IMG/VR virus record: IMGVR_UViG_3300012271_000022 | Location: 1 to 42,718 of that record | Strand: one strand, 5' to 3' | DNA length: 42,718 bases | Origin: a virus | Shown: in pieces, positions 11,101 to 42,718 of the stretch | Position numbering within the stretch: the stretch's first letter is position 1 | Layout of the letters: each line of letters begins with the position of its first letter | Notes under the pieces: model-generated | Databases searched by the model: none | What the model saw: only the letters and a program-made list of their open reading frames with translations | Told to the model about the DNA's origin: nothing | Position numbers and translations under genes: made by a program

Positions 11101-11102
11101 TG
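11039..11102 (+). repeat. Direct repeat copy A (end of tape measure gene)
   Basis: This segment, encoding LDTALYESGQRGRRNKGKR and the stop/ATG junction, recurs at 11266-11329 with only two base differences. The copies bracket a chimeric small gene and mark a recombination scar. Confidence 0.9.
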
Positions 11103-11327: not shown

Positions 11328-11329
11328 TG
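11266..11329 (+). repeat. Direct repeat copy A' (recurs from 11039-11102)
   Basis: Second copy of the tape-measure tail end, differing at two positions. The ATG of the next gene (11327) lies in its last bases, just as the chimeric gene's ATG lies at the end of copy A. Confidence 0.9.
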
Positions 11330-14083
11330 CCAAGTAAAAAACATGAGTCATCAATCATTGTGTCTAACACAAACATACCAAACGGTGTTTATAGGTTTGT
11401 CGTTACAGATTGGGACACAAATACATTGTACGAGTCATCGGTTCAGACCGTTGTTGATGGTGAAGTAGATTTTTTAATAGGTGCTGCCCGTGGTCAAAAA
11501 TGTATGGTAGGTGTAACGCCCAATGACTTCCCACCTGAATACAGTGCGTACTTTGGTAGAATATCGGACGGTACTGTTGAAATGTTTGCTAATGAAAGTA
11601 TGAAAATAGGAAATGACTTTGCACCAACAAACATATTGTTACTAGGAAGTGAAAATTTTAATAACGGGAACACGTTTAATATAAACGGTGTATCAGTAAC
11701 TATAACAAGTCAATACAGTTTGCATGTTGGTTTAAACGGTATGTATGATTACTTGGATATTGGACAAAGTGAAACCTTGCAAATACCTTACACAGAAGAA
11801 GATGCAACACTTGGCACTTCTATTTGGGTAGACGGTTGGGACAACTCATTAACAGGATATAACCCTAATGGTGGGGGTAGATGGGTAGATCAAGGTGACG
11901 GTTGGTATTCAACTAATTACAGTGAATTTCCTTTTACTAGAATAGCATTACTTGACGTTGATGAAGATGATATTTACGAGTTTAAAATAGAAATGAGGGA
12001 AAGTTCTCTAGGTGGTAGTTTAGCCGGTGAAATAAAGTTTAGTTTCGTAGATTCCAACAACGATTTTATAGGGCAAGAATATCAGAAGAATATTGGAAGT
12101 GATACGACTGCAGTTAACAGGTTTACGGTACCTTCAAACGCCGTTGGTTTTGTTGTAGATCCAGGTAGCGGTACAAGAGTAGATTTTAGAATAACAACAT
12201 TGTCAAGAGTGGAACCAGCTGAAATTAGCTATATCAATGTTCTTGTAAAAGGTTCTGAACAAGTAAGTGCCAAACTCGCTCAAACCGATTCTTTGTCAGG
12301 TACTAATTGGGTAAAAGACGGGTCCGAGTATACACACACACCTGGTCAGACTGCACCTTTAAGTGTTGCTGTTGCAACCTCAGTTGGTAAAGTAATCCAG
12401 ATAAGTTGTAACACAAAAAACGCTACGGCAGGTTCAATTACAATACCTAACGCAACACGCGACTACAGTACCGTAATGAACGATGGTGATGTTTGGTTAG
12501 TCAAAGCTACTAATAGTTCGTTTACTGTGAACTACACGCCTACAAGCGATTTTGACGGTGTTGTGTACGACACCTTTATAAGAGAAGTAATCACAGAAGT
12601 TTACGCGGCTAACGTATACGATCTAATTTCGGTAGATCACCCTACGTCTGGCAAAGCAACCTTAGAATGGAAGTGGCCTATAATTGCTTTGAGAAATAGT
12701 GTAACAGAAACACCCGACTACTATTTGACAGGTAAACTTGAACAGTCAGAAGATTTTGCACACAGATATGATAATGAAGAACAAAGCGCCGTTTATGAAA
12801 ACGTAAACTATGCAGGTACTAGAAGTGGTATCAGCCTTAGATCTGGCGGGTCGTGGGTAGAAGTTTTTAACGCTGTTGGTTTAGGTGGTTATACAGAGCA
12901 AGGTGTTATAAGTGGACCACTAATTGAAGAAGGTGGGTTTACAATAAGCGGTTCAGGTTTTACGTACTTAGGTTGGGGTAACTACTTTGCTGAAAATTCA
13001 ACTAACGACATTATACGAGCAGACATAAACGGTGTTGAAGGTGAAAAGATACACATAACAGTTTTAAAAAGAGGTGATACAAGCGGTACTATCATACCAA
13101 GACTTGTTGGTGATACTGTCACAACAGGAAACCTTGATTCGAGTTCAGATCAATTGCATGACATTTATGTAATAACAATACCTGCTAATGTTTTAAGAGT
13201 AGAATATGTAGCTAACAATTTTGAAGGTAGAATAAGTAGACTTATCGTTTCAAACTTCTTACGAGAATTAGATGATCCCAGCAATGATCAATATCAATCA
13301 TTGTTTGCTAATGCAAACAGATCAGGACCACAAGTTGACGATTTAAGAATGTATTATTTTGACTTTGATTTGTTTATACCTCCTATGCCTGATAACTACG
13401 GTACTACTAACTCTGATGGTATTTTATTAAATAGGGGTTTTGACACATCTAAATCATATTTAGGGAATGCCTTTATGGTTGGCGGTGACATTAAAAATAT
13501 ATCTGATGCTGGTGTTGATGGTAAAACAGACACATTCTTTAATCACGGCCAAATATTTGGTGGTCATCGTGGTTTTCGTAATCATTCACAAGCACATCAC
13601 GTATTGACAAACTCAGAAATAAATAGACATGGTGAGACACAAGCTGCTTTGTTTTTTGCTACAGTTGAAGAAAGGCTTACACTTTGGAATTTATATGTAG
13701 ATAACGTTCGTTCTACATCTTCTTTACAGTTAAGTGATTTTATGAACATAGACCCACCTGTTCAAGCTATAAGTACAGAAGGCGCTTTGTCAGGTGATTG
13801 CAATGAAACCTCAGTAATTAGACAATGTAATGTTTTAAGAACCGTACCTAAAATAGATCCTAAAGCAAAAGTAGCAATGACTCACATGGAATTTGAACAT
13901 AAACTGTCTAACGCAAGCACGTGGCAAACTTTAGACTTACCATTGGTTGATCTACCAGGGTTCGTGGGTAACAGAAGAAGGACATTTGATTTGTCACCTG
14001 ACACTTATGACTTTAGATGTAGATGTATTAACGGCGAACATACGGGAAGTTGGGCTACAATAAGTAATCAGGTTGTCAACTAA
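11327..14083 (+). CDS. Large tail-tip associated protein, inserted module
   Basis: I do not recognise a single family for this 918-residue protein. The N-terminus (NGVYRFVVTDWDTNTLYESSVQ...) looks like a small beta domain. Two later stretches (about 165-310 and 500-650) share the pattern of beta-sandwich carbohydrate-binding domains, e.g. WVDQGDGWYSTNYSEFPF. The last 80 residues, with FEHKLSNASTWQTLDLP and YDFRCRCINGEHTGSW, look like a fibronectin type III domain. Asn, Thr, Ser and Gly richness and the absence of long helices suit a surface adhesin or tail-tip decoration. It lies between tape measure and hub genes in a segment that interrupts an otherwise contiguous pair, so it was probably acquired. 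Confidence 0.6.
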   Translation: MPSKKHESSIIVSNTNIPNGVYRFVVTDWDTNTLYESSVQTVVDGEVDFLIGAARGQKCMVGVTPNDFPPEYSAYFGRISDGTVEMFANESMKIGNDFAPTNILLLGSENFNNGNTFNINGVSVTITSQYSLHVGLNGMYDYLDIGQSETLQIPYTEEDATLGTSIWVDGWDNSLTGYNPNGGGRWVDQGDGWYSTNYSEFPFTRIALLDVDEDDIYEFKIEMRESSLGGSLAGEIKFSFVDSNNDFIGQEYQKNIGSDTTAVNRFTVPSNAVGFVVDPGSGTRVDFRITTLSRVEPAEISYINVLVKGSEQVSAKLAQTDSLSGTNWVKDGSEYTHTPGQTAPLSVAVATSVGKVIQISCNTKNATAGSITIPNATRDYSTVMNDGDVWLVKATNSSFTVNYTPTSDFDGVVYDTFIREVITEVYAANVYDLISVDHPTSGKATLEWKWPIIALRNSVTETPDYYLTGKLEQSEDFAHRYDNEEQSAVYENVNYAGTRSGISLRSGGSWVEVFNAVGLGGYTEQGVISGPLIEEGGFTISGSGFTYLGWGNYFAENSTNDIIRADINGVEGEKIHITVLKRGDTSGTIIPRLVGDTVTTGNLDSSSDQLHDIYVITIPANVLRVEYVANNFEGRISRLIVSNFLRELDDPSNDQYQSLFANANRSGPQVDDLRMYYFDFDLFIPPMPDNYGTTNSDGILLNRGFDTSKSYLGNAFMVGGDIKNISDAGVDGKTDTFFNHGQIFGGHRGFRNHSQAHHVLTNSEINRHGETQAALFFATVEERLTLWNLYVDNVRSTSSLQLSDFMNIDPPVQAISTEGALSGDCNETSVIRQCNVLRTVPKIDPKAKVAMTHMEFEHKLSNASTWQTLDLPLVDLPGFVGNRRRTFDLSPDTYDFRCRCINGEHTGSWATISNQVVN

Positions 14084-14988
14084 TGAATAATGTATGGGGT
14101 TTATCAGGTGCTTGGAGAACAAACTTTACTGATGTTACACCTCCTGTACTAACATTAATTGGTGGTAATGCTGTAGTCCTTGTCGGGACACTGTATAAAG
14201 AACAAGGTTACTCTGCATCGGATAATGTTGATGGTGACATAACGTATCGAGTTTGGAGTGTGATACCTGCTACAAATGTTGTCGGTTTGTTTTATATTGA
14301 CTACTATGTGTTTGACAACGTAGCTAACTTGACAAAGGTAAGTAGACCTTTAATTGTATCATCTGGTTATACACCAATCCCAGAAGAGGAATTTATAATG
14401 TATGACATAAGCGACTACCCATGGGCTGAGTTTTCACTAACTGAAAATCGTACCCAATTTGTTCTTGATACTTTATCACTAAGACGTAAAAAACGTGGTA
14501 AAGGTCATCATCGATACGAAATAGAGTTAGTCACAATCGATATGCCAATGGATCAAGGTAGGGATATAAAAGCAAGATTATCAGATGCGTATGACGCAAA
14601 GCTGACTTTCATACATCCACGCTTAGGTTTTAGTCGTGGTACTGAACCAGAGGAAGGGATTACTTCAAATAACAATTATGCGAAAGGTTTACGTGAAATA
14701 GCACTTACATCTGAAGGTACTTGGCAAATGAAGTCAGGCGATATTTTTACCTTTGCCAACCATACAAAAGTGTATGAGATTGTTGGTTCTACTGAATTAA
14801 AAAATGGAACTAGTGTTATTAGATTAAGTAGTCAATTACAGAAAGCTGTGGTTCAAGGTGAAGAGATCACCGTTAATGGTGTAGCATGGACATTAATTTC
14901 TGATAGTGTCATAGAAGTGTCTACTGAAGCATCGGAAAACCAAGACATGAAACTGGTACTAAACGCTGTAGAGGATTTATCATTTTGA
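14083..14988 (+). CDS. Ig-like (DUF5011) domain fused to minor tail protein
   Basis: The 301-residue frame has two parts. Residues 20-100, with TPPVLTLIGGNAVVLVG, then DNVDGDI, then a strand pattern ending in VSRPLIV, match a DUF5011/HYR-like immunoglobulin domain. Residues 106-301 begin MYDISDYPWAEFSL and form a separate minor tail protein, whose truncated double lies at 11100. The second part retains its own start (14398) and ribosome site (GAGGA, 14386-14390). So a long fused product and a short 196-residue product may both be made. The C-terminal part probably corresponds to a distal-tail or connector component next to the hub; the precise family is not clear to me. Confidence 0.7.
   Translation: MNNVWGLSGAWRTNFTDVTPPVLTLIGGNAVVLVGTLYKEQGYSASDNVDGDITYRVWSVIPATNVVGLFYIDYYVFDNVANLTKVSRPLIVSSGYTPIPEEEFIMYDISDYPWAEFSLTENRTQFVLDTLSLRRKKRGKGHHRYEIELVTIDMPMDQGRDIKARLSDAYDAKLTFIHPRLGFSRGTEPEEGITSNNNYAKGLREIALTSEGTWQMKSGDIFTFANHTKVYEIVGSTELKNGTSVIRLSSQLQKAVVQGEEITVNGVAWTLISDSVIEVSTEASENQDMKLVLNAVEDLSF
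14398..14988 (+). CDS. Minor tail protein, internal-start product of the 14083 gene
   Basis: This is the same frame as the fused gene, starting at an ATG with GAGGA 7 bases upstream; it would yield 196 residues. The beginning matches residue for residue, with few changes, the chimeric gene at 11100. This suggests that 14398 is the ancestral start and that the Ig-like segment was joined on later. After that, GTEPEEGITSNNNYAKGLREIALTSE and a beta-rich end with ITVNGVAWTLISDSVIEVS follow. The stop overlaps the hub gene start by 4 bases. Confidence 0.6.
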   Translation: MYDISDYPWAEFSLTENRTQFVLDTLSLRRKKRGKGHHRYEIELVTIDMPMDQGRDIKARLSDAYDAKLTFIHPRLGFSRGTEPEEGITSNNNYAKGLREIALTSEGTWQMKSGDIFTFANHTKVYEIVGSTELKNGTSVIRLSSQLQKAVVQGEEITVNGVAWTLISDSVIEVSTEASENQDMKLVLNAVEDLSF

Positions 14989-17900
14989 ACAATGCACCAG
15001 CATCAATAGTAGCACTCTTAGAATCAGATAATTTTGAATATGCAAACCTGGTAAAAGTAAATTTAGGTGACGCTTACGGTTTAGGTGTAGATTTTATCCT
15101 TTATTATAGTGACCATAGGAACACCTTAATTTATGACGGTGATACATACACACCTAACAATCACTTAACAGAGCTTGACGGTATAAGCAGAAAAGCCGAA
15201 ACCGGTTCAGATAAAGTAGATATTTCGTTCGGTGTAACTGATATAAATCTTATTGACGGTATTAGAGCAGAAAGATATATAAACAAACCAACTGAAATAC
15301 TGAGAGTAATCGTTGTTGAAGGTGTTGTGTTTGAAGATTATGCCATACCTATAAGAACTGCTTGGGGTATATCGCATTCTATTGAGGGCGGTTTAAATGA
15401 CCGGTTCATTACCTTAACAATTGATTCTTCATTAGGTGACTTAGAAACTGATAATGGTTGGTACGTATTAAACTCAAGTCACCAACAAAGACAACCGAAC
15501 GATTTAATAATGAATTGGGCCAGTACTGTATTTACAGACGAACAAAAGACTCGATACATAAGCAATCCGAGTGGTGTCATTACGCAAGATGTTAAACCTC
15601 CTTCTTTGCCTGTTATATACGGGTATAAGAACGTCACCCCTGTACCTATTCTTAGATTGCAACATAGAAAGACTCACACTAGTTACAGACATTATTTTAC
15701 TACGTGGATCTACGTAGTGGGTATCGGACAATTAACGAATGTCGATGTGGCTAACCTTCGAAAAGGTGGTGAAGCAATTGATATGAAGAACGTAATTGAT
15801 GACTCTTTTGATGTGGGTGGTTGGTCATATCGTGTGCTGACACCTACTGAAAATACTACTTTCATAAAAACCAATACTAAGTTGAATTTCTGGCGTGAAA
15901 ACATGGACACAAACGAAAGAAATCGTCTAAACGGTATGTTCGGAAAAGGTTTAACACTTCTATTTGTCAAAAATAGAAACCGTGACGATTGGGTGCAGTC
16001 TAATCCTGAATTTACTGTTCCTGTACTTGGAAAAGACATCTACGATCCAAGGGTACCAACAGGACCACAAGCTGATCAGAAGTACCTTAGAAATCCAGCA
16101 CTACAATATTATGATTTTTTACGCTCAACTGATTACGGTGCAGGTAATAAGAATGTTAGTGTTAGTGAAGCAAACATAACTATATTAGCAAATCACTTTG
16201 ACAACTTACCAGGCTCAGAGGGTAATCCAGGTATAGATAGTATTCGATTTGATGTTCAGTTAGATACCGGTAAACCATTAACCGATAACATGAATATATG
16301 GATTGAGGGTGCTAGGCTTTACACTAGCGATTATTATGGCGAGTTTCTAGTAAGGGCTGAAACTATTGCTACCCCTGTTTACTCTTTCACTGAGGACGAT
16401 TTAGAAGGTGATCCAGATTACAGTTCAGGCGATTTTACTGATAAAATAACCAGATTAACTTATAAGGTTAAACAGTTAGCTCCTGACATTTCAGAAGATG
16501 CAGAAGTCGGAGATTTAATCGAGGTTGATGTTGAAGCTACGTTTCCACCAATTAACAGTGGAATATATAATGCTTGGTTAGCTGAAGATGGAGGGATAGA
16601 AAATTTTGAATCCGAACAGTTAGAGTACGTAACAGAGCTACAGCAAGGTTTTTTTTGGGCCATGGTTGACGCTAGGGTGTCAAGACAACCAAGGACGCTT
16701 ACGTTGCCAGTTGGACCTATAGGATGGTTGCTTGAAGCTGGTGATGTAATAGAGTATTCATCTGACATTTCAAAGCATGACGAATCACTTTGGCGTATTG
16801 TTGAAGTAAAAGAGAATGATAGTGCTGGTATTGATTTAGATTGCGTTGGGTATGCTGACGAATTTTATTCACCCGATCCGAATGTTATACCTGACCCCAC
16901 GCCTTTTGCTAAACCACCTACAGAAGATAAGTTAATAGCCGTCATTGGTTTTGAAATACTAAACATACAGGATAATTACTACTTAAACTTTCAACCATTA
17001 GTAACATCAAATGTAGCTTACTATGCTGTCGAAGTTGAAAGTACGTCCGATGAAGGTGTCATAATATATGATGAACCTCAGTTAGCATTCCCACCGTTGT
17101 TACTTCCTGACATAATCGCTGGATCATATATTTCTAGGGTTGTAGCTGTAGGTATCAACAATGAAGGAATTGAAGGTAACTACAGTTTCACAATAAACGG
17201 ATTAGTCACATCTACCGATACACCAGACGTTTCTGATGTGGTACCAGGTCGAATAGTTGTTGAACCTCCTACACCATTATTCGAGAATAGAACGTATGAA
17301 TGGCGCTATTATACTTCACAAAATTCGACTGCTGTTTATTGGGGTGACGCGAGAGTCTTTAACCTTGCACCAATAGTGGAAGATGTTACCTACTTTATTG
17401 AGTATCGTTTAAAATCTATAATTAATAGCGTTACACCTGGCGCTTGGGTTGACATACAGATTAATGGTGTTGAACAAATATTGTATACATGGATCGCCTA
17501 TGCAGATGACGATCAAGGTTCTGGTATAACTACAGACATTGAAGGTAAGAGTTATTACGGTATAGCCACGGGAAGGACAAACCCTACTATTAAAATTGAT
17601 GTGCCTGAGTTATTCGATTGGTTTTTACAACTTGTAGGGGACGGCGCACCCGCGGTAACAGCAACATTAAGCAATGAAGCACACATTATACCCACTGATG
17701 AATTAGGTGAAGTTGTTAGTTACTTTGGTGCTGTTACTACAATGCAAGTTTCCGTTGGTTTAGCCGATGATACTGCAGCATGGAATATATCAGCGACAAC
17801 AGGACCAGGTGTAACTGGAACATTAACCGATGCAACATTTACCGTTACAGGTATGACTTTTGATTCTAGCTTTGTTAGATTGATAGCGACCAGAAGTAAC

Positions 17901-18398
17901 TACCCTAATATAATAAAAATCTTTAGTTTGTCAAAGGGTAGACAGGGAGAAACAGGAGGACCAGGTGCAGACTCACCTGATGCCACAATAATAAAAGATC
18001 AAGGTACTAAAAGGAGTGGAAGCCTAAACGAAATTATAGTTTACTCAATAACTGTACCTGCCGCTGGTTTGTGGGATGTTTCGTGGAATGTATCTGGTGA
18101 ACAATTTTATGTAGAATATGAAGATTATGATCCGAATGACGATCAAGGTGCTGGATCAAGTGACATAATACCTTCTAGGGTAACGATTAGGCTTAATGAA
18201 AATGGAACACCTTTTGCTCAAACAAGCGATCCTTCTACCACCACTTTTGAACTTGACAACACTTTTAGTTATTCAGGATCGTCTGCAGGTAGAAATAATG
18301 ATAAGACATACACTATGAGTATTGATCCTGATATAGACGGTAATGCTGATGCTGGATACACAGAAATAACAGGTTATTTACAGGCGGTAAAACAATGA
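14985..18398 (+). CDS. Tail-tip hub / host-specificity protein (J-like)
   Basis: The 1137-residue protein would form the baseplate hub and carry the central fibre. Residues 1-250 look like a minor tail/baseplate N-domain with DGDTYTPNNHLTELDGISRK and TLTIDSSLGDLETDNGWYV. The middle (about 375-640) has J/hub signatures: YYDFLRSTDYGAGNKNVSVS, DARVSRQPRTLTLPVG, then the GDVIEYSS...WRIVEV block of the hub beta domain. Residues 640-980 are fibronectin/Ig-like, and a short collagen-like RQGETGGPGADSP lies near 985. The C-terminus (about 1000-1137) is a new beta domain, likely receptor-facing. Overlaps at both ends imply coupled translation. Confidence 0.82.
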   Translation: MNNAPASIVALLESDNFEYANLVKVNLGDAYGLGVDFILYYSDHRNTLIYDGDTYTPNNHLTELDGISRKAETGSDKVDISFGVTDINLIDGIRAERYINKPTEILRVIVVEGVVFEDYAIPIRTAWGISHSIEGGLNDRFITLTIDSSLGDLETDNGWYVLNSSHQQRQPNDLIMNWASTVFTDEQKTRYISNPSGVITQDVKPPSLPVIYGYKNVTPVPILRLQHRKTHTSYRHYFTTWIYVVGIGQLTNVDVANLRKGGEAIDMKNVIDDSFDVGGWSYRVLTPTENTTFIKTNTKLNFWRENMDTNERNRLNGMFGKGLTLLFVKNRNRDDWVQSNPEFTVPVLGKDIYDPRVPTGPQADQKYLRNPALQYYDFLRSTDYGAGNKNVSVSEANITILANHFDNLPGSEGNPGIDSIRFDVQLDTGKPLTDNMNIWIEGARLYTSDYYGEFLVRAETIATPVYSFTEDDLEGDPDYSSGDFTDKITRLTYKVKQLAPDISEDAEVGDLIEVDVEATFPPINSGIYNAWLAEDGGIENFESEQLEYVTELQQGFFWAMVDARVSRQPRTLTLPVGPIGWLLEAGDVIEYSSDISKHDESLWRIVEVKENDSAGIDLDCVGYADEFYSPDPNVIPDPTPFAKPPTEDKLIAVIGFEILNIQDNYYLNFQPLVTSNVAYYAVEVESTSDEGVIIYDEPQLAFPPLLLPDIIAGSYISRVVAVGINNEGIEGNYSFTINGLVTSTDTPDVSDVVPGRIVVEPPTPLFENRTYEWRYYTSQNSTAVYWGDARVFNLAPIVEDVTYFIEYRLKSIINSVTPGAWVDIQINGVEQILYTWIAYADDDQGSGITTDIEGKSYYGIATGRTNPTIKIDVPELFDWFLQLVGDGAPAVTATLSNEAHIIPTDELGEVVSYFGAVTTMQVSVGLADDTAAWNISATTGPGVTGTLTDATFTVTGMTFDSSFVRLIATRSNYPNIIKIFSLSKGRQGETGGPGADSPDATIIKDQGTKRSGSLNEIIVYSITVPAAGLWDVSWNVSGEQFYVEYEDYDPNDDQGAGSSDIIPSRVTIRLNENGTPFAQTSDPSTTTFELDNTFSYSGSSAGRNNDKTYTMSIDPDIDGNADAGYTEITGYLQAVKQ

Positions 18399-19033
18399 GT
18401 CGTTATACAATCACAAGTGATTTAGATAATCAGATCATTAGAACATTAGTGTGCAAACCTGAATGGATAGAGTTACAGGTGAAAGAAAATGAAACTTGCC
18501 ATGACGGTAATTTCCCACATGATGAATTTACATACAACAGTGTTGGTTTTGAACGCAAAGAAACCCTTGATAAAAAATCACTCATACATAAATCGAGTAA
18601 AGAATTATCGATGAACATTATGAAAGAGTTAAAACATGCTGGTATTGCATTGCCGATGCACGATGAATCTATGAGATCAAAAATGCAAGCGAAACGATTA
18701 ATTGATCAAGCTGCAGGTCGCGCTCGTTGCAGATTTGCAAGTCCTGGTAACATGATTGAAGAAGAGTACAATCAAGCTAAACGATTTAGTGTTGCGTTCC
18801 TTTTAGATGATACACAATCAGTCCCACCCATGGTTCAAAGTTGGGCTACAGCATCAAATAGAACACCCGTTGAAGCTGCTCAGAATATTGTAGATACTGG
18901 TGCCGGTTGGGAACGAATACTAAACGTAACCTACGATCTACGACTACGAGGCAAAGCCGCTGTTGATTTAGCAACACTAGAAACTTTTGTATCTGTTGCC
19001 GAAAATTATATAAACCAATTGGATGCTATATGA
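18395..19033 (+). CDS. Tail-fibre associated protein of unknown function
   Basis: The product has 212 residues. The N-terminal 130 residues, helical with DESMRSKMQAKRLIDQAAGRARCR, are not recognised. The last 75, with VPPMVQSWATASNRTPVEAA, then W..ILN and YDLRLRGKAAVDLA, resemble a C-terminal domain often found on phage tail fibres or their companion proteins, having the pattern 'VP..V..WA...G....A...I...A..W......IR..RL.GKAAV'. Position immediately after the hub (4-base overlap) and before lysis genes fits a tail-tip/fibre accessory. Chaperone versus structural role cannot be separated. Confidence 0.6.
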   Translation: MSRYTITSDLDNQIIRTLVCKPEWIELQVKENETCHDGNFPHDEFTYNSVGFERKETLDKKSLIHKSSKELSMNIMKELKHAGIALPMHDESMRSKMQAKRLIDQAAGRARCRFASPGNMIEEEYNQAKRFSVAFLLDDTQSVPPMVQSWATASNRTPVEAAQNIVDTGAGWERILNVTYDLRLRGKAAVDLATLETFVSVAENYINQLDAI

Positions 19034-23248: not shown

Positions 23249-25981
23249 TCAGTTAAACATACACTTGTCAAGCATATTTACGATAATCTTGTTTGTTAAT
23301 TCTTTGGCTTCACTGGCACTAATTGTTTGTGCTACAAATACATTATGTCCAAACTGTCTGTTAAACTCACCTTGTACAACTTCGATACTTAAACCCTTCT
23401 TAAAACCTATTTCGTTACACCACTGCACCACCCAATATCGTAGCTTGGTTTGGTTGGTTTGACGAAGAGTGTGCTTTTTAACTGCAGATGAAACTATCAT
23501 GTGACTCATGTTAGCGTAAGTCATTCTAGCTTTCATGTCCTCTGGTAGTTCATCGACTTTCTTGATTTGGGCCATGACTTTGACTTGCCAACCGGTATCA
23601 TATTCAACCAATATGCCGTCATCTTCTAATCGCTTTTTGGCTGTTTCATCACGTTGGTCTTGTGTCTCTTTGTGAGTACACTGAGGACAGACATATGAAT
23701 TGATGTTTGCTGAACTAGGTTTGTAATAGTTCCTACACTTAGGGCACGTTCTTGATAATATATCTAAACCATCATTGCTAGATTTTTTAGTGTCATCGTA
23801 TCTATCAAGTGTCCAAACAGGGCTATCATGTACGTGCGCTAAGTAACGACAATGACGATCAACGTTGCCTACGTGGTCAATCAGTATGCCAAACTCTTTA
23901 CCCTCAAACACTCTTAATCCCCGTCCAAACATTTGCATGAACAAAGCATAGGATTCTGTTTTACGTAACATCTGGATCACTGCGACTGCAGGTACATCAA
24001 AGCCTTCACCGAACAAATCATAGTTTACCAGTAGATCTATTTTACCTTGCCTGAACTCTCGGATCTTTTGCTGTCTGTAAGTCTCTTTGCTTTTACTTGA
24101 TAGTGATACGGCATTGACACCTTTGTCTCGAAACTCTTTGGCAACATGATCTGCATGGGCAATACTTGCTGCAAATATTATACCCTGCTTTCCGTCTGCT
24201 AATCGCTTGTAGTGTTTGTAAGCGTCACCGGTAATTTCTGCTTTATCTGTTGCCTTTGCTAGTTTAAGTTGGTTCCAATCACCACCTTTGGTTTTGTTTA
24301 CACCTGTCATGTCTACTCGATCTAGTGGGGTATAAACCTTATAGTCTGATAACCTACCTCTGTTGATAAGTTCACCCATGCCAGGCGTTTCTACTATGCT
24401 GTCAAACACACCGTCTGTGTGCCTACCTAGACCCTTGTTATCCGCACGTTTTGGTGTTGCTGTAACACCTAACCCGATTGCATTTACTAATGGTTTAACT
24501 GCTAGTCCCCACATATTATCTGCAAGGCAGTGATGACATTCATCTAATAACCATAGTCCGATCGCTTCATCTAACAATGTGGTGTCGCGCTTGATCCAAG
24601 TGGGGACCGATGCAATTATTAATCGTGAATTGTCAGTAATAAACGTTTCGCCTAGTTCTTCTATTTGTGCGTTAGAAATTAGTCGTTCTGTTGCTTTGGA
24701 GCATAACATTCGGTGAGGTATACCAACCATGGCTATTGACATTGCTATTTGATTTAACAATATGTCCCTGTGTGCAAAGATTATAGCTACACCGTCAGGG
24801 TTTTTTGCTAACCATCGTTTAGCCACGAATGCTTTTATAATTGTGTTATGAGTTACAGTAAAATCACCTAGTAAAAATAATCTGTCACCTGTGATCTCAA
24901 AACCGTAGTAATCACCTACACCTATAGGTTCTACTTTTATACCTGTTACTAACACATCTTTCTTTTGCTTTCGTGTTGGCGGTTGGTGCCTTTTTAGCTT
25001 GGTAGGTATTACCGACACATCACCTGATATACTTAGTCTAAAGTAAGTTTTAGTAACACCATTGTTGCAACAGGTTTTCCTACAAGGTTTAATATAGGAT
25101 GCAAAACCTAAAGACCTAGCAAGGTAAACCGTATCATTTGCTAATATTTCATTCTTGAAAATAACATCATAATAACCTTTGGATAGATGACCATCACTAT
25201 CTAATAAACCGGCTAGTAACTCCAACCTATCCTGTCTATTAGACATTTTATATTTATCAGGTATGTGTTTGTTAGTTAGCAGGTTGTTTGATTTAAGGGA
25301 TTTTCTTGTTGAAGGTTTTATTCGCATTCTTAAATTTGATAAACAATAATTACTAGACTTGTTATTTATCATTGTTTCTTTACGTAACTGTTGGTTAGTA
25401 TCGATTGTAAATTTGTTTAAGTAATCAACTACTTCAACATCTGCAGTTGTAATGGTTGCATGATAAGAACTACCATCACCTAACCACACGCCTAATAAAT
25501 AAGGAGGTAAACATTCATCGTCAATACTTTTACTTTGGAAATCAACACCAGTTCTGTAACCCTTGTGACAATGTTTCCAATATTTAGATTTGGATAGATA
25601 ATCTTTAACGGTGATGTTTACAATCCCACCTTTAATTGTATTTTTGTCACCTGTGCGTTTAAGGCTGAGTATGTGACTTTCATTAACTGTATAGCTTTCG
25701 CCCTTAACAGGTGTAATCTTATAAAGCATTTCTTTACCTGTACAAGTAGACATAACTTTACGTTTCTTACTATCCGGTCCCATTAATGTTTCACCAACAG
25801 TTATATCTTGAACCATTTTTATTGAACCATTATACATTAGAACAGGAGTGTCTTTCCCCAGACATTTACCTGCGCCGGTGGGTGCCACTAAGCAAACATT
25901 AATCACACCAGCTAACCATTCATCAAAGATGTCAGTTATGGCTTGTTCTTGGTAGTCGTGAGGGCGTTTGATCTTTGGCAT
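23249..25981 (-). CDS. SF2 DNA helicase interrupted by a homing-endonuclease intein
   Basis: The precursor has 910 residues. Host protein: a P-loop APTGAGK (33-39) continuing as TIIKAF (380-385) after splicing, motif II DECH (480-483), motif III-like TATPKR (507-512), motif VI QMFGRGLR (683-690) and a zinc ribbon (C746, C749, C765, C768), i.e. an SF2 ATP-dependent DNA helicase of the phage replication type. Without the intein it is 570 residues. It starts right after the methyltransferase stop. The intein splits the ATP-binding loop between Lys39 and Thr380, so the helicase is inactive until splicing. Confidence 0.9.
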   Translation of the reverse strand: MPKIKRPHDYQEQAITDIFDEWLAGVINVCLVAPTGAGKCLGKDTPVLMYNGSIKMVQDITVGETLMGPDSKKRKVMSTCTGKEMLYKITPVKGESYTVNESHILSLKRTGDKNTIKGGIVNITVKDYLSKSKYWKHCHKGYRTGVDFQSKSIDDECLPPYLLGVWLGDGSSYHATITTADVEVVDYLNKFTIDTNQQLRKETMINNKSSNYCLSNLRMRIKPSTRKSLKSNNLLTNKHIPDKYKMSNRQDRLELLAGLLDSDGHLSKGYYDVIFKNEILANDTVYLARSLGFASYIKPCRKTCCNNGVTKTYFRLSISGDVSVIPTKLKRHQPPTRKQKKDVLVTGIKVEPIGVGDYYGFEITGDRLFLLGDFTVTHNTIIKAFVAKRWLAKNPDGVAIIFAHRDILLNQIAMSIAMVGIPHRMLCSKATERLISNAQIEELGETFITDNSRLIIASVPTWIKRDTTLLDEAIGLWLLDECHHCLADNMWGLAVKPLVNAIGLGVTATPKRADNKGLGRHTDGVFDSIVETPGMGELINRGRLSDYKVYTPLDRVDMTGVNKTKGGDWNQLKLAKATDKAEITGDAYKHYKRLADGKQGIIFAASIAHADHVAKEFRDKGVNAVSLSSKSKETYRQQKIREFRQGKIDLLVNYDLFGEGFDVPAVAVIQMLRKTESYALFMQMFGRGLRVFEGKEFGILIDHVGNVDRHCRYLAHVHDSPVWTLDRYDDTKKSSNDGLDILSRTCPKCRNYYKPSSANINSYVCPQCTHKETQDQRDETAKKRLEDDGILVEYDTGWQVKVMAQIKKVDELPEDMKARMTYANMSHMIVSSAVKKHTLRQTNQTKLRYWVVQWCNEIGFKKGLSIEVVQGEFNRQFGHNVFVAQTISASEAKELTNKIIVNMLDKCMFN
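24845..25864 (-). mobile_element. Intein with LAGLIDADG homing endonuclease, in helicase Walker A
   Basis: A 340-residue element (precursor residues 40-379). It starts with Cys40 (CLGKDTPVLMYNG), has a block B-like KGESYTVNESHILSL (93-107) and ends FTVTHN before the +1 Thr380: Cys1, terminal His-Asn and a Thr nucleophile, the standard splicing set. Two LAGLIDADG-type motifs, LLGVWLGDGS (162-171) and LLAGLLDSDGHL (255-266), indicate a homing endonuclease that is probably still complete. Placement in a P-loop is a known intein hot spot. Confidence 0.93.
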
Positions 25982-34652: not shown

Positions 34653-34722
34653 TGTTCAGCAAGCACAAGCAGAAATTGAGAACCTACAAAGGTTGCTTGA
34701 TATGGGTATTGGTAGGGTCTAA
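34579..34722 (+). CDS. Small basic coiled-coil protein, overlapping gene
   Basis: A 47-codon gene nested in the 3' end of the previous one in a different frame. GGAG at 34567-34570 lies 8 bases before the ATG. The product begins MPVSKNKRRNKKKK and ends in an amphipathic helix (QQAQAEIENLQRLLDM). It is the last plus-strand gene; its stop overlaps the convergent minus gene's stop by 3-4 bases. Nucleic-acid binding is likely from charge alone. Confidence 0.55.
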   Translation: MPVSKNKRRNKKKKGVSQLQRARGNVQQAQAEIENLQRLLDMGIGRV

Positions 34723-35042
34723 ACGACCACTACCTTACCAAGTCTACATATCGCATTTGATGCCAGTTCATAACCGTTAGAGTACTTAGGATTAAACCCT
34801 GTAACGGTTATTTCATATTCACCAATGTCAAGTTGAGTGTCAACACCAATAGAAAAATGTAATTCTTTAGCTGTTATTATAGTTACTTCTGGTCCGTCAG
34901 TATCATAAGTAGTACCATTAATTTCTACTTCAATCTTAGTAAAGTTATTCAAACCTAATTGTCTAAAAGGAGGTTTAAACTCAAACTTTAAGGCAACCTC
35001 GTTACCTCTACCCTTGACTATTTTGTTTTGAATACAAGACAT
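34719..35042 (-). CDS. Structural protein of the adhesin block, hypothetical
   Basis: This 107-residue beta-rich protein (MSCIQNKIVKGRGNEVALKF...) has no recognised domain; the pattern of alternating strands with DTDGPEVTIITAKELHF and GEYEITVTGF resembles small phage Ig-like or head/tail decoration domains. It is the last gene of the minus-strand adhesin block and converges with the small plus genes. It likely forms part of the same tail-fibre complex as the 948-residue protein. Confidence 0.5.
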   Translation of the reverse strand: MSCIQNKIVKGRGNEVALKFEFKPPFRQLGLNNFTKIEVEINGTTYDTDGPEVTIITAKELHFSIGVDTQLDIGEYEITVTGFNPKYSNGYELASNAICRLGKVVVV

Positions 35043-35043
35043 T

Positions 35044-35466
35044 TTACGAACTCACAAAAAGATTGTCGCTTGGTGTTAGGTTAAGTTTTTCACCGTCATT
35101 TAGCGTTAACGCTGAACCGTAATCAAAGAAAGATATTAACGGGTCGTTTGCAGGTGTACTGTTGTAACAAACAGCATATCTAAACGGACCTATGGTTCCA
35201 CCGGCTGCAGTGATAACAATAGGTGTTTCATCTACATCTAGTTCATAGTTACCACCCGATTGATCAGATGAAGTAATAGGAATAGTAACGCCACCGGCAT
35301 CATATCCATTTTCTGCTGTTATTTCTGCTAAGTTGGCTTTTATACCATTACTTGCTTGGTTAGGTGTCGCATTAGTTAAATACACTTTAATTGTGTTACT
35401 AGAAAGATTATGCACACCGTTATGTACATCTGCTATGAATTTGTGAAACTTATTATAACCAGCCAT
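35044..35466 (-). CDS. Structural protein of the adhesin block
   Basis: This 140-residue protein begins MAGYNKFHKFIADVHNGVHN and continues with beta-rich, Asn/Gly/Thr-rich sequence (TIKVYLTNATPNQASNG, YAVCYNSTPANDPL). Similar small proteins accompany LamG adhesins and decorate tails or heads of marine phages; this is my inference from composition and position. The start overlaps the end of the 948-residue gene by 14 bases. No enzymatic motif. Confidence 0.55.
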   Translation of the reverse strand: MAGYNKFHKFIADVHNGVHNLSSNTIKVYLTNATPNQASNGIKANLAEITAENGYDAGGVTIPITSSDQSGGNYELDVDETPIVITAAGGTIGPFRYAVCYNSTPANDPLISFFDYGSALTLNDGEKLNLTPSDNLFVSS

Positions 35467-38299
35467 AATAATTAACCTTAATGTTTGTTTGTTTATATGT
35501 TGTGTTAACTAATGAGTCATCATAATACGCTTTAACTGGTGTTTGCACAAAACTAATTGAGTAACTACCAATTTCAAACCCTGAGAACTCGCTGTAATCA
35601 ATACTAACAGATGATCCAATCGTAGTATATACACCAGTGTTCATTGTTAACTGTCTGTGAAGCAAAGCCGAAACAGGCGATCCTTCGGTAGTGTATGAAC
35701 CTGGACTCATTGCTAACATTCTATTAGTTAACAGTGGTATATCATTACCAGTGACAGAATATAAACCTGTACTCATATTCAACATTCTGTCAACTAACAA
35801 TGATACATCATCACCAACGGTTGAATATGAACCTGGACTTATTGCTAACATTCTATTAGTTAACAGTGATAGATCATCACCAACGGTTGAGTATGAACCT
35901 GACGCAAGCGTGATGTTGTATTGGTTTGGAACCACATAATCGAACGTAAAATCAGATCCAACGGTACTATAGGTACCCTGGCCTAACACTAAATCATAGG
36001 CGTTTGTCTCTATATAGCTAAAAGTAATAGAACGGCCTGTTACACTGTATGATCCCTGTTGAAGATCCAATACCCTATCAGCAAGTAAGTTTACCGGTTG
36101 TCCTGTTACATCATAGTTACCTTGATCAAGTGACATAGCACGTTGAGTTAATAACGAAATGGGTTGTCCGGTTCTATCGTAGTTACCTTGGTCAAGCGAT
36201 AAGGACCGGTTAGCTAATAACGAAACGGGTTGTCCAGTTACATCGTAAGTGCCCTGGTCAAATACAATAGACCGATCAGCAAGTAAGTTTACCGGTTGTC
36301 CGGTTGTATCGTAAGTGCCTTGGTCGAATGATATGGCACGTTCAGTAATTAAACCAACATCATTGCCGGTGGTAGAGTAGTTACCTTGATTAAGGGTCAT
36401 AGCACGTTCGGATAATAAAGAAAGTTCATTACCTGTAATAGAGTATGTGCCAACGTTTAATAAAAAATTGTAGGTTGAAGTTTGAGCGTAATCAAAACTA
36501 AAAGTAGAACCTGTTGTTGAATAACTACCTTGTTCAAGCGATATGGCACGTTCAGTTAAAATACTTACCGGTTGTCCGGTTACATCATAACTACCTTGAT
36601 TAAGGGGTAAAGACCGGTTAGCTAATAACGAAACAGGTTGTCCGGTTACATCGTAACTGCCTTCATTAAGGGGTAAAGACCGGTTAGCTAATAACGAAAC
36701 AGGTTGTCCGGTTACATCGTAACTGCCCTGATCGAATAATATGGAACGTTCAATTGATAGATTTAGCTGCTGTCCAGTTACATCATAGTTACCTTGGTCA
36801 AATGATAGGGAACGTTCAGTTAAAAGATTTAGCTGCTGTCCAGTTACATCATAGTTACCTTGGTCAAAGCTAAACATGTAGGTTGTTATATCAGATTGTC
36901 TACCCCAGGCGTTTATGTCGAACGCTTCGGTTCCTGTTAACTCAATTTCTGACCAGTAAACTATGTCTTGAATTTTACCTTCAAAGGGATCAAAATTTCT
37001 ATTGCCGTTGCTATCTCTTATATCTGCTACACCACCTATACTAATGTCCCCTCCGTGAGCGGCTAGTTCGTTCCCTACATTTGGTTGTTCTTCGCCAATT
37101 GATACACCATCAATCCAAAAATTCATTCGGTCTAGGCTGAAATCAAATGAATAAAATACATGATATGTTTGATTTGCATTAATAGCGTGTCGTATAAAAC
37201 CTTGCGAGTTACTTGATTCACCAACTAAAAATAGCAGGTCGCTACCTTCTTGAATCATTGTGATCCAGTTAACAGATCCGCCTTGCTCATAAACTGCCCT
37301 GGCTCTGTTATTTGTAGGTAAAGAGTCTGCTGTAAACCACATACTCATAGACCCTTTTACACGAGTCGAGTTTATTCTAGCATCGTTTGTTACGTTTATT
37401 TCTGAGTTACCACGATCAAAAAAAGCTGACTGATCATCTGGTAAAGACGGTATGATACTGTCAGTGTATGCCGTTCCTGCGCTTGCTTCGGCGTTGTAAC
37501 CCTCAACTGCATCGTCAGTGTTGCCGTTTAACTTCCATCTAAATGTTGGGCTTAGGTCCGGTACTGGGTCGTCTGACGATGTGCCAGGTGACGATAATGT
37601 TAATGGTTGACCTGTTAGAGAATAAACACCTTGATCTAAAGTTAAATCGTATTCTGTTGCATTGCTGCCGTTATCATAAAATACCCACTGGTCCCCATTT
37701 GTAGCTGTACCCTGTAAGTCACCGTCAGTTGACCCTGTACCCTCTGAATCAGGGAGTTTAAGGCCTGTGCCGTTTGATTCGGTTGCATTGTAGTCACATA
37801 ACCTATTTCCCCCTGTTACAGCATCAAATTCTTGATAGCGGTATATATGAAAATTTAGCGATCTAAAGTCGTTGCCAAAATACGTCATTCCGCCGAACGC
37901 GCCAGTAGATGTAGACTCGGCCCTAGAAGTAGTGCCAATTACTATATCTTGTGATACTCCATCTATGAAAAGTTCGTGAGTGGCCCCATCCCCCGTAATT
38001 ATAATTTCATGTGGGTTTTCGTCATGTACAGTAGCCGTATACTCAAAAGTTATTGGTACAATTGGATTATTATACCCATAGTAAAGGTCCATGGTTTTAA
38101 AATCATCTGCGTGAGAAATAGACAGAAGGTAGTCTACATTACTCTCTAAAGTACCTGTTATAAAGTAGTAACCACTTGTAGCAGAGGTCGTAGGAATCGC
38201 GATATCAATGACAACCCTGTACTGGTTTAGAGTATAAGCAGAGAGGTTTATGTTGGTAACAGTAGCACCTGCTATTAGGTCAAGATAATAGTTAGACAT
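35453..38299 (-). CDS. LamG-domain tail adhesin with tandem 22-residue repeats
   Basis: This protein has 948 residues. Two concanavalin/LamG-type beta-sandwiches occupy about 15-200 and 250-470: in the second, FRWKLNGNTDD, the SMSMWFTAD strand and NFWIDGVSIG are typical. From about 474 to 915 there are repeated units of 22 residues with core (D/N)QGxYxxTGQ and end (S/N)LLxxR; counting the early copy near 220 I see about 20 full units plus one degenerate. Three longer spacers break the array into blocks. The last 40 residues form a distinct end (TPVKAYYDDSLVNTTYK). It is likely a repetitive stalk or receptor-binding fibre; glycan binding by LamG is family knowledge, the role here is inferred. 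Confidence 0.8.
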   Translation of the reverse strand: MSNYYLDLIAGATVTNINLSAYTLNQYRVVIDIAIPTTSATSGYYFITGTLESNVDYLLSISHADDFKTMDLYYGYNNPIVPITFEYTATVHDENPHEIIITGDGATHELFIDGVSQDIVIGTTSRAESTSTGAFGGMTYFGNDFRSLNFHIYRYQEFDAVTGGNRLCDYNATESNGTGLKLPDSEGTGSTDGDLQGTATNGDQWVFYDNGSNATEYDLTLDQGVYSLTGQPLTLSSPGTSSDDPVPDLSPTFRWKLNGNTDDAVEGYNAEASAGTAYTDSIIPSLPDDQSAFFDRGNSEINVTNDARINSTRVKGSMSMWFTADSLPTNNRARAVYEQGGSVNWITMIQEGSDLLFLVGESSNSQGFIRHAINANQTYHVFYSFDFSLDRMNFWIDGVSIGEEQPNVGNELAAHGGDISIGGVADIRDSNGNRNFDPFEGKIQDIVYWSEIELTGTEAFDINAWGRQSDITTYMFSFDQGNYDVTGQQLNLLTERSLSFDQGNYDVTGQQLNLSIERSILFDQGSYDVTGQPVSLLANRSLPLNEGSYDVTGQPVSLLANRSLPLNQGSYDVTGQPVSILTERAISLEQGSYSTTGSTFSFDYAQTSTYNFLLNVGTYSITGNELSLLSERAMTLNQGNYSTTGNDVGLITERAISFDQGTYDTTGQPVNLLADRSIVFDQGTYDVTGQPVSLLANRSLSLDQGNYDRTGQPISLLTQRAMSLDQGNYDVTGQPVNLLADRVLDLQQGSYSVTGRSITFSYIETNAYDLVLGQGTYSTVGSDFTFDYVVPNQYNITLASGSYSTVGDDLSLLTNRMLAISPGSYSTVGDDVSLLVDRMLNMSTGLYSVTGNDIPLLTNRMLAMSPGSYTTEGSPVSALLHRQLTMNTGVYTTIGSSVSIDYSEFSGFEIGSYSISFVQTPVKAYYDDSLVNTTYKQTNIKVNYYGWL
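35557..36880 (-). repeat. 66-base tandem repeats in adhesin gene
   Basis: About 20 copies of a 66-base unit encoding the G-x-Y-x-x-x-G repeats. Two adjacent units (36601-36661 and 36667-36727) are identical over 61 bases, so copy number has changed recently. Diverged units towards the 3' end of the gene are older. Confidence 0.9.
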
Positions 38300-38300
38300 T

Positions 38301-38942
38301 TTAAGCCACTACACCATAAGCATTATCCACATACATATCTTCATAAATCGGGCATTGAACACGATAAGTATTTAATTCTTGTACATTACGAAAACCGGCA
38401 ACTCTTACGTACTCAAAAGACCCATCACCAAAAGTAACTCTACGATATATTTGTGGGTTATGTTTTTCGGGTGCATCTGCATTTAGTAATATTGTACAGA
38501 ACCCTTTTTCAATACTTACAGATTTGCGGTTGATTGTACCATGGGCTATATCAAAGTCTTGCTTGGTTGCGTTCTCATGTGGGTAATACAAACTATTAGC
38601 ACGTGACAACACGACCACTTTTAATTGACCTAAAATTGTAGATACAGCGACAGATTCACCGTTCATTTCAATGGTAATATTAGCATCAATTAAAGATTGA
38701 TATGCAGCAATTTGCAAAATACCCGTTGGGCTGTTTTGCATAAAATTGTAATCAACAGAATCCATAAAAGCATCCATTTCATTTTGTGCCGGATGACCTT
38801 CTGTTCTCGCTATTTTCTTCATTGCTGAATATACTTTAACTGACGCTAAATAACCGTTAAAAGTGTCACGGTGTATCAATGATTCAGTCCATTGTGGATA
38901 TTCTTTAGCGAGTTGTAGCGTGGTAAAATTTACGAGTGACAT
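38301..38942 (-). CDS. Hypothetical structural protein
   Basis: This 213-residue protein starts MSLVNFTTLQLAKEYPQWTE and has a helical N-terminal half (with DAFMDSVDYNFMQNSPTG) and a beta-rich C-terminal half (NADAPEKHNPQIYRRVTFGD, YRVQCPIYEDMYVDNAYG). It looks like a tail or fibre-base component from position directly before the adhesin gene (one-base gap). No motif for an enzyme; not a family I can name. It is preceded by the membrane-protein gene 38947. Confidence 0.5.
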   Translation of the reverse strand: MSLVNFTTLQLAKEYPQWTESLIHRDTFNGYLASVKVYSAMKKIARTEGHPAQNEMDAFMDSVDYNFMQNSPTGILQIAAYQSLIDANITIEMNGESVAVSTILGQLKVVVLSRANSLYYPHENATKQDFDIAHGTINRKSVSIEKGFCTILLNADAPEKHNPQIYRRVTFGDGSFEYVRVAGFRNVQELNTYRVQCPIYEDMYVDNAYGVVA

Positions 38943-39481: not shown

Positions 39482-39973
39482 CTAGGACAGTAGGTTGTTG
39501 GAATATTTAGAGTACTTAGTTAATTCATGCTTGTCAACATTATATTTAGCGCACATTAATTTCACGTTGTTTTCAAACCCTTTAAGTTCTTGTGTAATGC
39601 TTGAGGAAAAATCGAGGATCATAATGTGGTCAAGTAGCGTCTGTATTGCTATTGGTTTTTCAATAAAATCTACCACCATTAGTTTTACGCCGGTCATAAC
39701 ATCTTTTACGTTATCGTCTGCAGATAAACAAATGAACTGTATATTTTGAGTTTCAGGGTTGGACCTTACCTGTTTATAAAGATGGTTATCTGCTATCTGT
39801 GGCGATTTAATATCCATGATGATTATACTAGGTTCGTACTCTTTTATCAGAGGTAGTGCAAGATCGCTATCATTCACCTTTCTAAACTCGATACCTGAAT
39901 GCAACAAGGCATCACAGACGACAGACATAGAACCACCGCCAATACCTACCAGTAACACTCGTAAACGTTTCAT
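39482..39973 (-). CDS. CheY-like receiver-domain protein, acidic pocket missing
   Basis: The product has 163 residues. The fold of a response regulator receiver is visible: strand 1 RVLLVG, Asp54 in IIIMDIKSP (the phosphorylation site position), Ser84 in ICLSADD and Lys106 in FIEKP. The acidic pair that normally binds Mg2+ after strand 1 (DD) is replaced by GIGGG, so normal phosphorylation is doubtful and this may be a pseudo-receiver. About 40 C-terminal residues are helical and extra. Phage receivers are rare. It overlaps the coiled-coil membrane gene by 4 bases, and a terminator follows. Confidence 0.75.
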   Translation of the reverse strand: MKRLRVLLVGIGGGSMSVVCDALLHSGIEFRKVNDSDLALPLIKEYEPSIIIMDIKSPQIADNHLYKQVRSNPETQNIQFICLSADDNVKDVMTGVKLMVVDFIEKPIAIQTLLDHIMILDFSSSITQELKGFENNVKLMCAKYNVDKHELTKYSKYSNNLLS

Positions 39974-42596: not shown

Positions 42597-42718
42597 AATC
42601 AAATCACCTGGCTATCAAATCACCTGGCTATCAAATCACCTGGCTATCAAATCACCTGGCTATCAAATCACCTGGCTATCAAATCACCTGGCTATCAAAT
42701 CACCTGGCTATCAAATCA
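42597..42718. repeat. Tandem 16-base repeats at window end
   Basis: Seven full copies plus part of an eighth of the unit ATCAAATCACCTGGCT, identical to each other, run to the last base. The true copy number is not known, since the window stops inside the array. The CACCTGG word echoes the CCTGGCACCT of the nearby repeats. Confidence 0.9.

What the first reader, a model, noticed from the sequence alone, without database searches (positions are those of the whole stretch)
35453..38299. Adhesin with about twenty 22-residue repeats and a recent 66-base duplication
LamG domains suggest glycan binding. The array breaks into blocks with older and younger copies, and two neighbouring units are identical over 61 bases, so the stalk length may vary between isolates and alter reach or host range. 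The gene lies on the opposite strand from the tail genes, unusual for a fibre.
Basis: partly seen in the sequence, partly recalled or inferred. Interest (0 to 1): 0.6.

Follow-up and report, generated by a model that had tools for sequence, protein, structure and literature searches.

The report
Phage adhesin with swappable head, repeat stalk
This phage gene encodes a probable surface adhesin whose front end has been exchanged and whose repeat-built stalk differs in length between two close relatives, and its repeat belongs to a widespread, apparently unnamed phage family that usually sits beside one small protein with a tail-fibre-adaptor-like fold.

Summary
ORF 35453-38299(-), 948 aa, carries 20 copies of a GxYxxTG repeat: 19 contiguous plus one lone copy. 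Most are 22 aa and three are 26 aa. Two neighbouring copies share a 63-base identical run (reader: 61). One LamG domain passes Pfam's cut-off; the first head domain matches nothing.

Its homologue has 12 units. Eight framework units are conserved in order, three intervals differ in number, the second LamG is absent, and the whole N-terminal head and the gene upstream are unrelated. The locus is more divergent even at synonymous sites, so this is not recent slippage alone.

The repeat is a phage family: at least 120 viral stretches against 11 in 257 Gb of genomes. It is tied to a 140-aa neighbour (phrog_644): 92 of 119 repeat loci against 0 of 120 control loci, always on the same strand. That partner's model (pLDDT 92) resembles phage fibre, adaptor and baseplate proteins.

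Best reading: a virion side-fibre of inverted polarity, with an exchangeable N-terminal lectin head, a beta-solenoid-like stalk and a C-terminal anchor. Presence in the particle is inferred, not shown.

The parts
35453..38299 (-). 948-aa repeat-stalk adhesin gene
37658..38299 (-). N-terminal head domain 1 (residues 1-214); no Pfam match, no counterpart in the relative G001
37589..37654 (-). lone repeat unit W0 (residues 216-237), counterpart of the first unit of the relative's array (52 of 66 bases)
36947..37408 (-). Laminin_G_3 domain (residues 298-451), lying between units W0 and W1 and absent at that place in the relative
35594..36883 (-). contiguous repeat array W1-W19, sixteen units of 22 residues and three of 26
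36599..36727 (-). recent 66-base duplication: 63 identical bases at 36599-36661 and 36665-36727
35456..35590 (-). C-terminal tail (residues 904-948), shared only with the relative G001 (first 33 residues); proposed anchor
35044..35466 (-). 140-aa phrog_644 protein, proposed fibre adaptor or bead; overlaps the end of the adhesin gene
34719..35042 (-). 107-aa protein downstream in the same operon; 98% identical in G001; function not assigned
38301..38942 (-). 213-aa protein directly upstream, replaced in G001 by an unrelated 122-aa gene together with the head

Best explanation
The gene most likely encodes a virion side-fibre (adhesin) of inverted polarity. The exchangeable N-terminal head, which includes a LamG lectin-like domain, points away from the particle and binds a surface glycan. 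The 22-residue repeats form a beta-solenoid-like stalk whose unit number sets its reach. The C-terminal end docks to the particle through the 140-aa phrog_644 protein, which has the predicted fold of phage fibre-adaptor proteins. The repeat units also act as homologous joints: unequal recombination changes stalk length, and head modules are swapped on the 5' side. Shown: the anatomy, the repeat-number and head differences between two relatives, the phrog_644 linkage, and the partner's predicted fold. Inferred: particle location, direction of the stalk, glycan binding, and the role in host range.
For: Relative G001: 12 units against 20. Framework pairs W0=G1, W6=G3, W7=G4, W13=G8, W14=G9, W15=G10, W18=G11 and W19=G12 keep their order (43-58 of 66 bases), while the intervals hold 5 units plus a LamG against 1, 5 against 3, and 2 against 0. 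Heads are unrelated, and 38301-38942 has no counterpart. Most other genes are about 84-100% identical; the remaining divergent ones are at the tail tip (11327-14083 absent, 14985-18398 at 80%, 18395-19033 at 36%), so this locus varies like receptor-binding genes. Linkage: a phrog_644-like ORF in 92 of 119 repeat loci and 0 of 120 control loci of equal total length; 77 of 96 after grouping similar repeat proteins; same strand in 92 of 92. Partner model: pLDDT 92. All nine VIA rows with Z of 4.7 or more are tail, neck, baseplate or fibre proteins of tailed viruses, led by 9f4a (Z 11.6, rmsd 2.6 A, 125 aligned) and 8jou chain a, 'Fiber I and fiber-tail-adaptor of phage GP4' (Z 8.8, rmsd 3.6 A, 121 of 136); the next row is Z 2.9. 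Polarity: of 115 distinct complete repeat ORFs, 41 have an N-terminal head of 100 aa or more with a C-terminal tail of 90 aa or less, and 2 have under 60 aa before and 150 aa or more after the repeats. In EBPR siphovirus 2 gp72 the repeats (profile E 2.6e-19) lie N-terminal to a large phrog_8917 domain (410-919). Of 54 heads scanned, 11 match Laminin_G_3. Literature: phage LSH1 has a three-gene module (gp34-36) with an N-terminal payload, a poorly predicted beta-helix-like C-terminal part, and a gp35 matching PDB 8JOU; the authors treat the module as virion-associated because it was in their mass-spectrometry survey (PMC13243795, section 16 and passages).
Against: No particle data for this phage; host unknown. 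Foldseek itself found no PDB match at E 0.001 or better for either model, and the partner's fold match rests on VIA's second look. The stalk model is only pLDDT 68.8, pTM 0.60. No profile match of the partner to a phage protein in the PDB by sequence. Of 115 complete repeat ORFs, 45 have under 60 aa before and 90 aa or less after the repeats, so a head is not essential to the family. The clearest fusion of a 22-residue array to a known tail protein (MW202473, phrog_394) has repeats that my profile does not recognise (5.2 bits), so it counts only as an analogue. Only one relative covers the locus.
Confidence: 0.66

Rival explanations
1. It is a capsid-bound (head) adhesin or decoration rather than a tail fibre: the module attaches to the head, and the lectin head tethers the particle to mucus, mats or the cell surface before the tail engages.
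For: In L004 the pair follows the probable capsid genes directly (judged there by gene order and size, no family scan was run); in MW202473 it follows genes annotated major capsid protein, and in Pam1 it follows capsid, cement, adaptor and needle-head genes.
Against: The nearest folds to the partner are neck, tail, baseplate and fibre-adaptor proteins; its homologue in Gordonia phage Sixama is annotated minor tail protein among tail genes.
Confidence: 0.18
2. The protein is not in the particle. It is made in, or displayed by, the infected host, for example to block superinfection or to bind debris, and its separate operon on the opposite strand reflects that.
For: Opposite strand from the tail genes, near a response-regulator-like receiver protein on the same strand (39482-39973).
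Against: No signal peptide or membrane segment was noticed by eye (not computed); linkage to phrog_644, the partner's fold and the LSH1 mass-spectrometry module argue for a virion role.
Confidence: 0.09
3. Variation in repeat number is neutral: repeats expand and contract by recombination and the length has no effect on reach or host range.
For: Unit counts in the family range widely (median 11, range 2-28 by a loose motif count in 115 complete ORFs); a 63-base identical pair points to continuing turnover.
Against: Framework units keep order and sequence at synonymous difference 0.44 with nonsynonymous difference 0.13, so the units are under purifying selection; that does not by itself show that array length matters.
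Confidence: 0.35
4. The repeat array itself binds carbohydrate along its length, like a beta-helix binding module, and is not merely a stalk.
For: Weak Pfam match of residues 540-708 to Cthe_2159, a carbohydrate-binding family (26.0 bits, cut-off 25.8); the predicted solenoid resembles pectate-lyase beta-helices (Z 9.6-10.1, rmsd 2.7-3.0 A).
Against: The match is at the threshold and in L059 falls below it (16.5 bits); regular solenoids align to one another readily.
Confidence: 0.15

Closest known systems
Alishewanella phage LSH1 structural module gp34-gp35-gp36 (PMC13243795)
   Same: Three adjacent genes: a large protein with an N-terminal polysaccharide-lyase-like payload and a C-terminal part only poorly predicted as beta-helix; a small protein matching PDB 8JOU; a further protein (gp36, Ig-like fold). 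The authors' working model puts gp36 on the virion, gp35 as a fibril, gp34 as payload.
   Different: Paper seen: section 16 and passages.
Ralstonia phage GP4 fibre I and fibre-tail adaptor (PDB 8JOU)
   Same: A 136-residue chain has the predicted fold of the phrog_644 partner (Z 8.8, rmsd 3.6 A, 121 aligned). Recalled from the 2023 abstract, not seen here: fibre I is a chain of dimers linked by an elongated rope protein.
   Different: No sequence match by profile; which of the two molecules chain a is was not established; no LamG head known to me in GP4.
Classical trimeric tail fibres and tailspikes
   Same: Modular, exchangeable receptor-binding end; co-varying neighbouring gene.
   Different: Classical fibres anchor by the N-terminus; here the conserved end is C-terminal.
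Domain shuffling in phage receptor-binding proteins (PMC10684548, abstract and section list seen)
   Same: Recent swapping of domains in receptor-binding proteins.
   Different: Here the swap lies beside a repeat array whose unit number also differs.

Membership tests
Laminin G / concanavalin A-like lectin domain | Profile match above curated cut-off | tested here: met
   Residues 298-451, Laminin_G_3 31.8 bits, cut-off 27.6; residues 1-214 no match
Laminin G / concanavalin A-like lectin domain | Carbohydrate binding | not tested
   Needs protein; inferred from the family
phrog_644 (neighbouring 140-aa protein) | Profile match | tested here: met
   E 4.3e-12, 47.2 bits
Phage fibre-tail adaptor / GP4 8JOU chain (neighbouring protein) | Same fold over most of the chain | tested here: met
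   VIA Z 8.8, rmsd 3.6 A, 121 of 136 residues; KP1 baseplate interface 9f4a Z 11.6, rmsd 2.6 A, 125 aligned; Foldseek itself not significant
Phage fibre-tail adaptor / GP4 8JOU chain (neighbouring protein) | Sequence homology detectable by profile | tested here: not met
   Profile A3 against PDB: 7 hits, all E 0.17 or worse, none of them 8jou; so 'works like', not 'is a member'
Phage tail fibre / side fibre | Present in the virion | not testable with these tools
   No particle data
Phage tail fibre / side fibre | Encoded beside a protein with a virion-protein fold | tested here: met
   phrog_644 linkage 92 of 119 against 0 of 120; partner fold
LSH1 gp34-36 module | Sequence homology of all three proteins | not testable with these tools
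   PX020959 not held
Cthe_2159 beta-helix carbohydrate-binding family (repeat array) | Profile match clearly above cut-off | tested here: inconclusive
   26.0 bits against cut-off 25.8; 16.5 bits in a relative, L059
Parallel beta-helix / beta-solenoid (repeat array) | Fold | tested here: inconclusive
   Model with three short strands per repeat, pLDDT 68.8; VIA 4yzq Z 10.1, rmsd 2.7 A, 120 aligned; Foldseek not significant

The most novel reading that the evidence does not exclude
The repeat array is the rope and the phrog_644 protein the bead of a widespread class of chain-like phage fibres. Dimers of the phrog_644 protein clamp onto successive 22-residue units, so unit number sets both fibre length and bead number. 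The lectin or lyase head sits at the free N-terminus and is exchanged by recombination on the 5' side of the units. This would be a modular, length-adjustable, reverse-polarity adhesion device found in many unrelated tailed phages and not yet named.
Probability: 0.2. Interest if true: 0.78.

Novelty: new variant of a known kind. Interest (0 to 1): 0.56.

Why it matters
A repeat that no curated family covered clearly turns out to mark a common phage adhesion module: a linkage of 92 of 119 loci against 0 of 120 gives an unknown family (phrog_644) a testable role as fibre adaptor or bead. Two close phages with different heads and different stalk lengths are a natural experiment on whether fibre length and head identity control adsorption. 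It also offers an explanation for the poorly predicted, perhaps repetitive C-terminal part that the LSH1 authors could not account for, although that link is untested.

Tried and rejected
Simple recent slippage as the whole cause of the length difference: rejected, because synonymous difference is 0.44 in framework units and 0.34 in phrog_644 but 0.09-0.22 in three flanking genes, so the cassettes diverged further than the backbone.

Searching with the whole adhesin in viral contigs found nothing; with another phage's repeat protein, 2 loci in viral contigs, one of them the query's own, and none in genome contigs. The DNA pattern for two in-register units worked; my first attempt had the wrong spacer and returned 0.

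MW202473 as proof that the repeat family is fused to a tail protein: downgraded. Its array has the 22-residue period (22.5% identity at lag 22, 6-10% at lags 20, 21, 23, 24) and lies N-terminal to a phrog_394 tail-protein domain, but the repeat profile scores only 5.2 bits.

PDB profile match of the repeats to a Marinobacter-type Lap adhesin, 6xi3 (E 1.8e-8; the genus is recalled): set aside, because it aligns a short GSYxLTG stretch inside longer domains and no single stretch scores better than E 0.13.

Slicko01 as a stand-in for LSH1: 0 matches for repeat and for phrog_644 (the tool warns that an empty answer without a positive control shows nothing). No more isolates of this phage holding the locus: queries with the two flanking genes returned only the relative's own contig; a capsid query gave 4 short contigs beside it, whose returned stretches gave no repeat-protein hit (L017-L021); their remaining parts were not searched. 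Absence from the VIA lists is not used as evidence.

Literature: searches returned no paper that I could see describing this 22-residue repeat or phrog_644 (0 papers; for 78 and 79 only listings and abstracts were seen). Subscription journals are not covered.

Row drops: the architecture counts leave out incomplete ORFs and exact duplicate proteins, and seven loci that duplicate the window or the relative. Similar but non-identical loci remain in the 92 of 119; grouped, 77 of 96. Most of the 26 repeat loci without a partner are short stretches. For the Pfam scan of heads I gave 54 sequences: 53 of the 55 heads found, two near-duplicates left out, plus the window's second LamG region.
Full report
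WHAT IS THERE. The window is one virus record of 42,718 bases with a siphovirus-like gene set (terminase and capsid by Pfam; a distal tail and other tail proteins by PHROGs). ORF 35453-38299 on the - strand encodes 948 residues: an N-terminal head (1-214, no Pfam match), a lone repeat unit (216-237), a Laminin_G_3 domain (298-451, E 1.8e-7), 19 contiguous repeat units (473-902) and a 45-residue C-terminal tail. Three units have 26 residues, the others 22. The motif is far beyond chance: 18 GxYxx[TVE]G in residues 471-948 against a mean of 0.06 and a maximum of 2 in 2000 shuffles; identity at lag 22 is 48%. The recent duplication is real: 63 identical bases at an offset of 66, and a second neighbouring pair with 44.

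One other contig (IMGVR_UViG_3300037329_000042, 41,299 bases, handle G001) carries the same operon. Long aligned blocks of the two genomes outside the variable places are mostly 91-97% identical in DNA; the tail-hub block is 83%. Of 42 window genes compared with G001, three at the left end lie beyond the aligned end of the G001 contig; of the rest, the ones clearly divergent are the tail-tip genes (11327-14083 absent; 14985-18398 at 80%; 18395-19033 at 36%), this adhesin (57% over 610-944) and the gene upstream of it (38301-38942, none). The relative's homologue has 655 residues and 12 units. Comparing all units base by base, eight framework units keep their order while the intervals between them hold different numbers of units: W1-W5 plus the LamG domain against G2; W8-W12 against G5-G7; W16-W17 against none. 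The lone unit W0 in the window is the counterpart of the relative's first unit, so the LamG domain lies inside what is a continuous array in the relative. The rest of the head differs entirely; the relative's head carries its own LamG domain.

NOT SIMPLY RECENT SLIPPAGE. Synonymous difference is 0.44 in framework units and 0.34 in the phrog_644 gene, against 0.09, 0.22 and 0.11 in three flanking genes. The cassette is therefore older in its divergence, or imported, relative to the backbone. Nonsynonymous difference in the same units is 0.13, so the units are under purifying selection.

THE REPEAT IS A PHAGE FAMILY. A two-unit HMM confirms 118 of the 119 newly fetched viral loci and 0 of 120 control loci chosen by an arbitrary 14-mer. 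Over 806 distinct units picked by the motif itself, the consensus is roughly G-R-x-L-x-A-x-x-G-S-Y-A-L-T-G-Q-A-A-x-L-x-x; its core positions are fixed by the selection. Neither PHROGs (best E 0.011) nor Pfam (only Cthe_2159, at threshold) covers the repeats clearly.

THE PARTNER. A phrog_644-like ORF lies in 92 of 119 repeat loci and in 0 of 120 control loci (1.07 and 1.06 Mb); single-sequence phmmer gives 91 and 0. It is on the same strand in 92 of 92, upstream in 83 and downstream in 9, with a median gap of 587 bases; in the window it is downstream. After grouping similar repeat proteins the count is 77 of 96. In the phage records, all five that match through the repeat region (four Manatee Spring records and EBPR siphovirus 2) also match the partner. 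Of the 8 profile-confirmed genome loci, 5 have it. The partner's model is confident (pLDDT 92). Foldseek alone gives nothing significant; VIA-align on Foldseek's top 1000 ranks nine phage or archaeal-virus neck, tail, baseplate or fibre chains first (Z 11.6 to 4.7), then drops to 2.9. The second is from PDB 8JOU, 'Fiber I and fiber-tail-adaptor of phage GP4'. A homologue in Gordonia phage Sixama is annotated minor tail protein.

POLARITY. In 41 of 115 distinct complete repeat ORFs a head of 100 aa or more is N-terminal and a tail of 90 aa or less C-terminal; 2 have under 60 aa before and 150 aa or more after the repeats; 45 are essentially repeats alone. In EBPR siphovirus 2 gp72, profile-confirmed repeats lie N-terminal to a phrog_8917 domain of unknown function. 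In MW202473 an array of the same period, which my profile does not recognise, lies N-terminal to a phrog_394 tail-protein domain. Of 54 head sequences, 11 match Laminin_G_3, and others single glycan-related families. The window's C-terminal tail is found only in G001, as expected for a phage-specific dock. Together these suggest that the C-terminus faces the particle, the reverse of classical fibres; this is an inference.

FOLD OF THE REPEAT. AlphaFold2 on six units with 51 rows gives three short strands per unit (pLDDT 68.8, pTM 0.60). VIA-align finds beta-helices (pectate lyase 4yzq Z 10.1, rmsd 2.7 A, 120 aligned; a Caldicellulosiruptor adhesin domain 4wa0 Z 9.8, rmsd 2.5 A, 119 aligned). 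This favours a solenoid but is not strong.

LITERATURE. The closest description is the three-gene module gp34-36 of phage LSH1 (PMC13243795; section 16 and passages). The authors note that the payload's C-terminal part may contain 'some repetitive motif' and that gp35 matches PDB 8JOU. The window's order (adhesin, phrog_644, 107-aa protein) parallels it. I could not obtain the LSH1 sequence, so this is a lead. What I say of GP4's rope protein is recalled, not read.

VERDICT. The more interesting facts are that the head is exchanged, that the family is widespread and tied to one small partner with a fibre-adaptor-like predicted fold, and that the polarity appears inverted. Particle location and function remain to be shown.

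Noticed in passing
window 42598-42718: Perfect 16-base tandem repeat (7.6 copies) runs into the end of the record; absent from the relative's contig. May be an assembly end or a genuine terminal array.
   Followed up: partly
window 24848-25866, in ORF 23249-25981(-): Intein with Hint and homing-endonuclease domains inside a helicase; the relative G001 has the empty site.
   Followed up: partly
window 11327-14083: 918-aa ORF between tape measure and distal tail genes is absent from the relative; a 170-base direct repeat, 84% identical, lies at 11097-11266 and 14395-14564, suggesting loss or gain by recombination.
   Followed up: partly
window 39482-39973(-): Response-regulator receiver domain protein (E 1.2e-10) in a phage, upstream of the adhesin on the same strand.
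   Followed up: no
window 38301-38942(-); L001:5649-6017: Unrelated genes (213 aa and 122 aa) occupy the same place upstream of the adhesin and change together with its head; possibly a head-specific chaperone or partner.
   Followed up: partly
window 16.5-19.0 kb; L027:6240-9825: C-terminal part of the tail hub ORF and the 212-aa gene after it are divergent between the two phages; the relative's hub ORF is 1799 aa against 1137.
   Followed up: no
L031:6430-8691: Public record MW202473: an array with a 22-residue period but another motif lies N-terminal to a phrog_394 tail-protein domain, next to a phrog_644 homologue; a distant form of the same repeat or an analogue.
   Followed up: partly
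L029:7395-8126: Cyanophage Pam1 gene 10, next to its phrog_644 homologue (gene 9), begins with two degenerate repeat-like units seen by eye.
   Followed up: no
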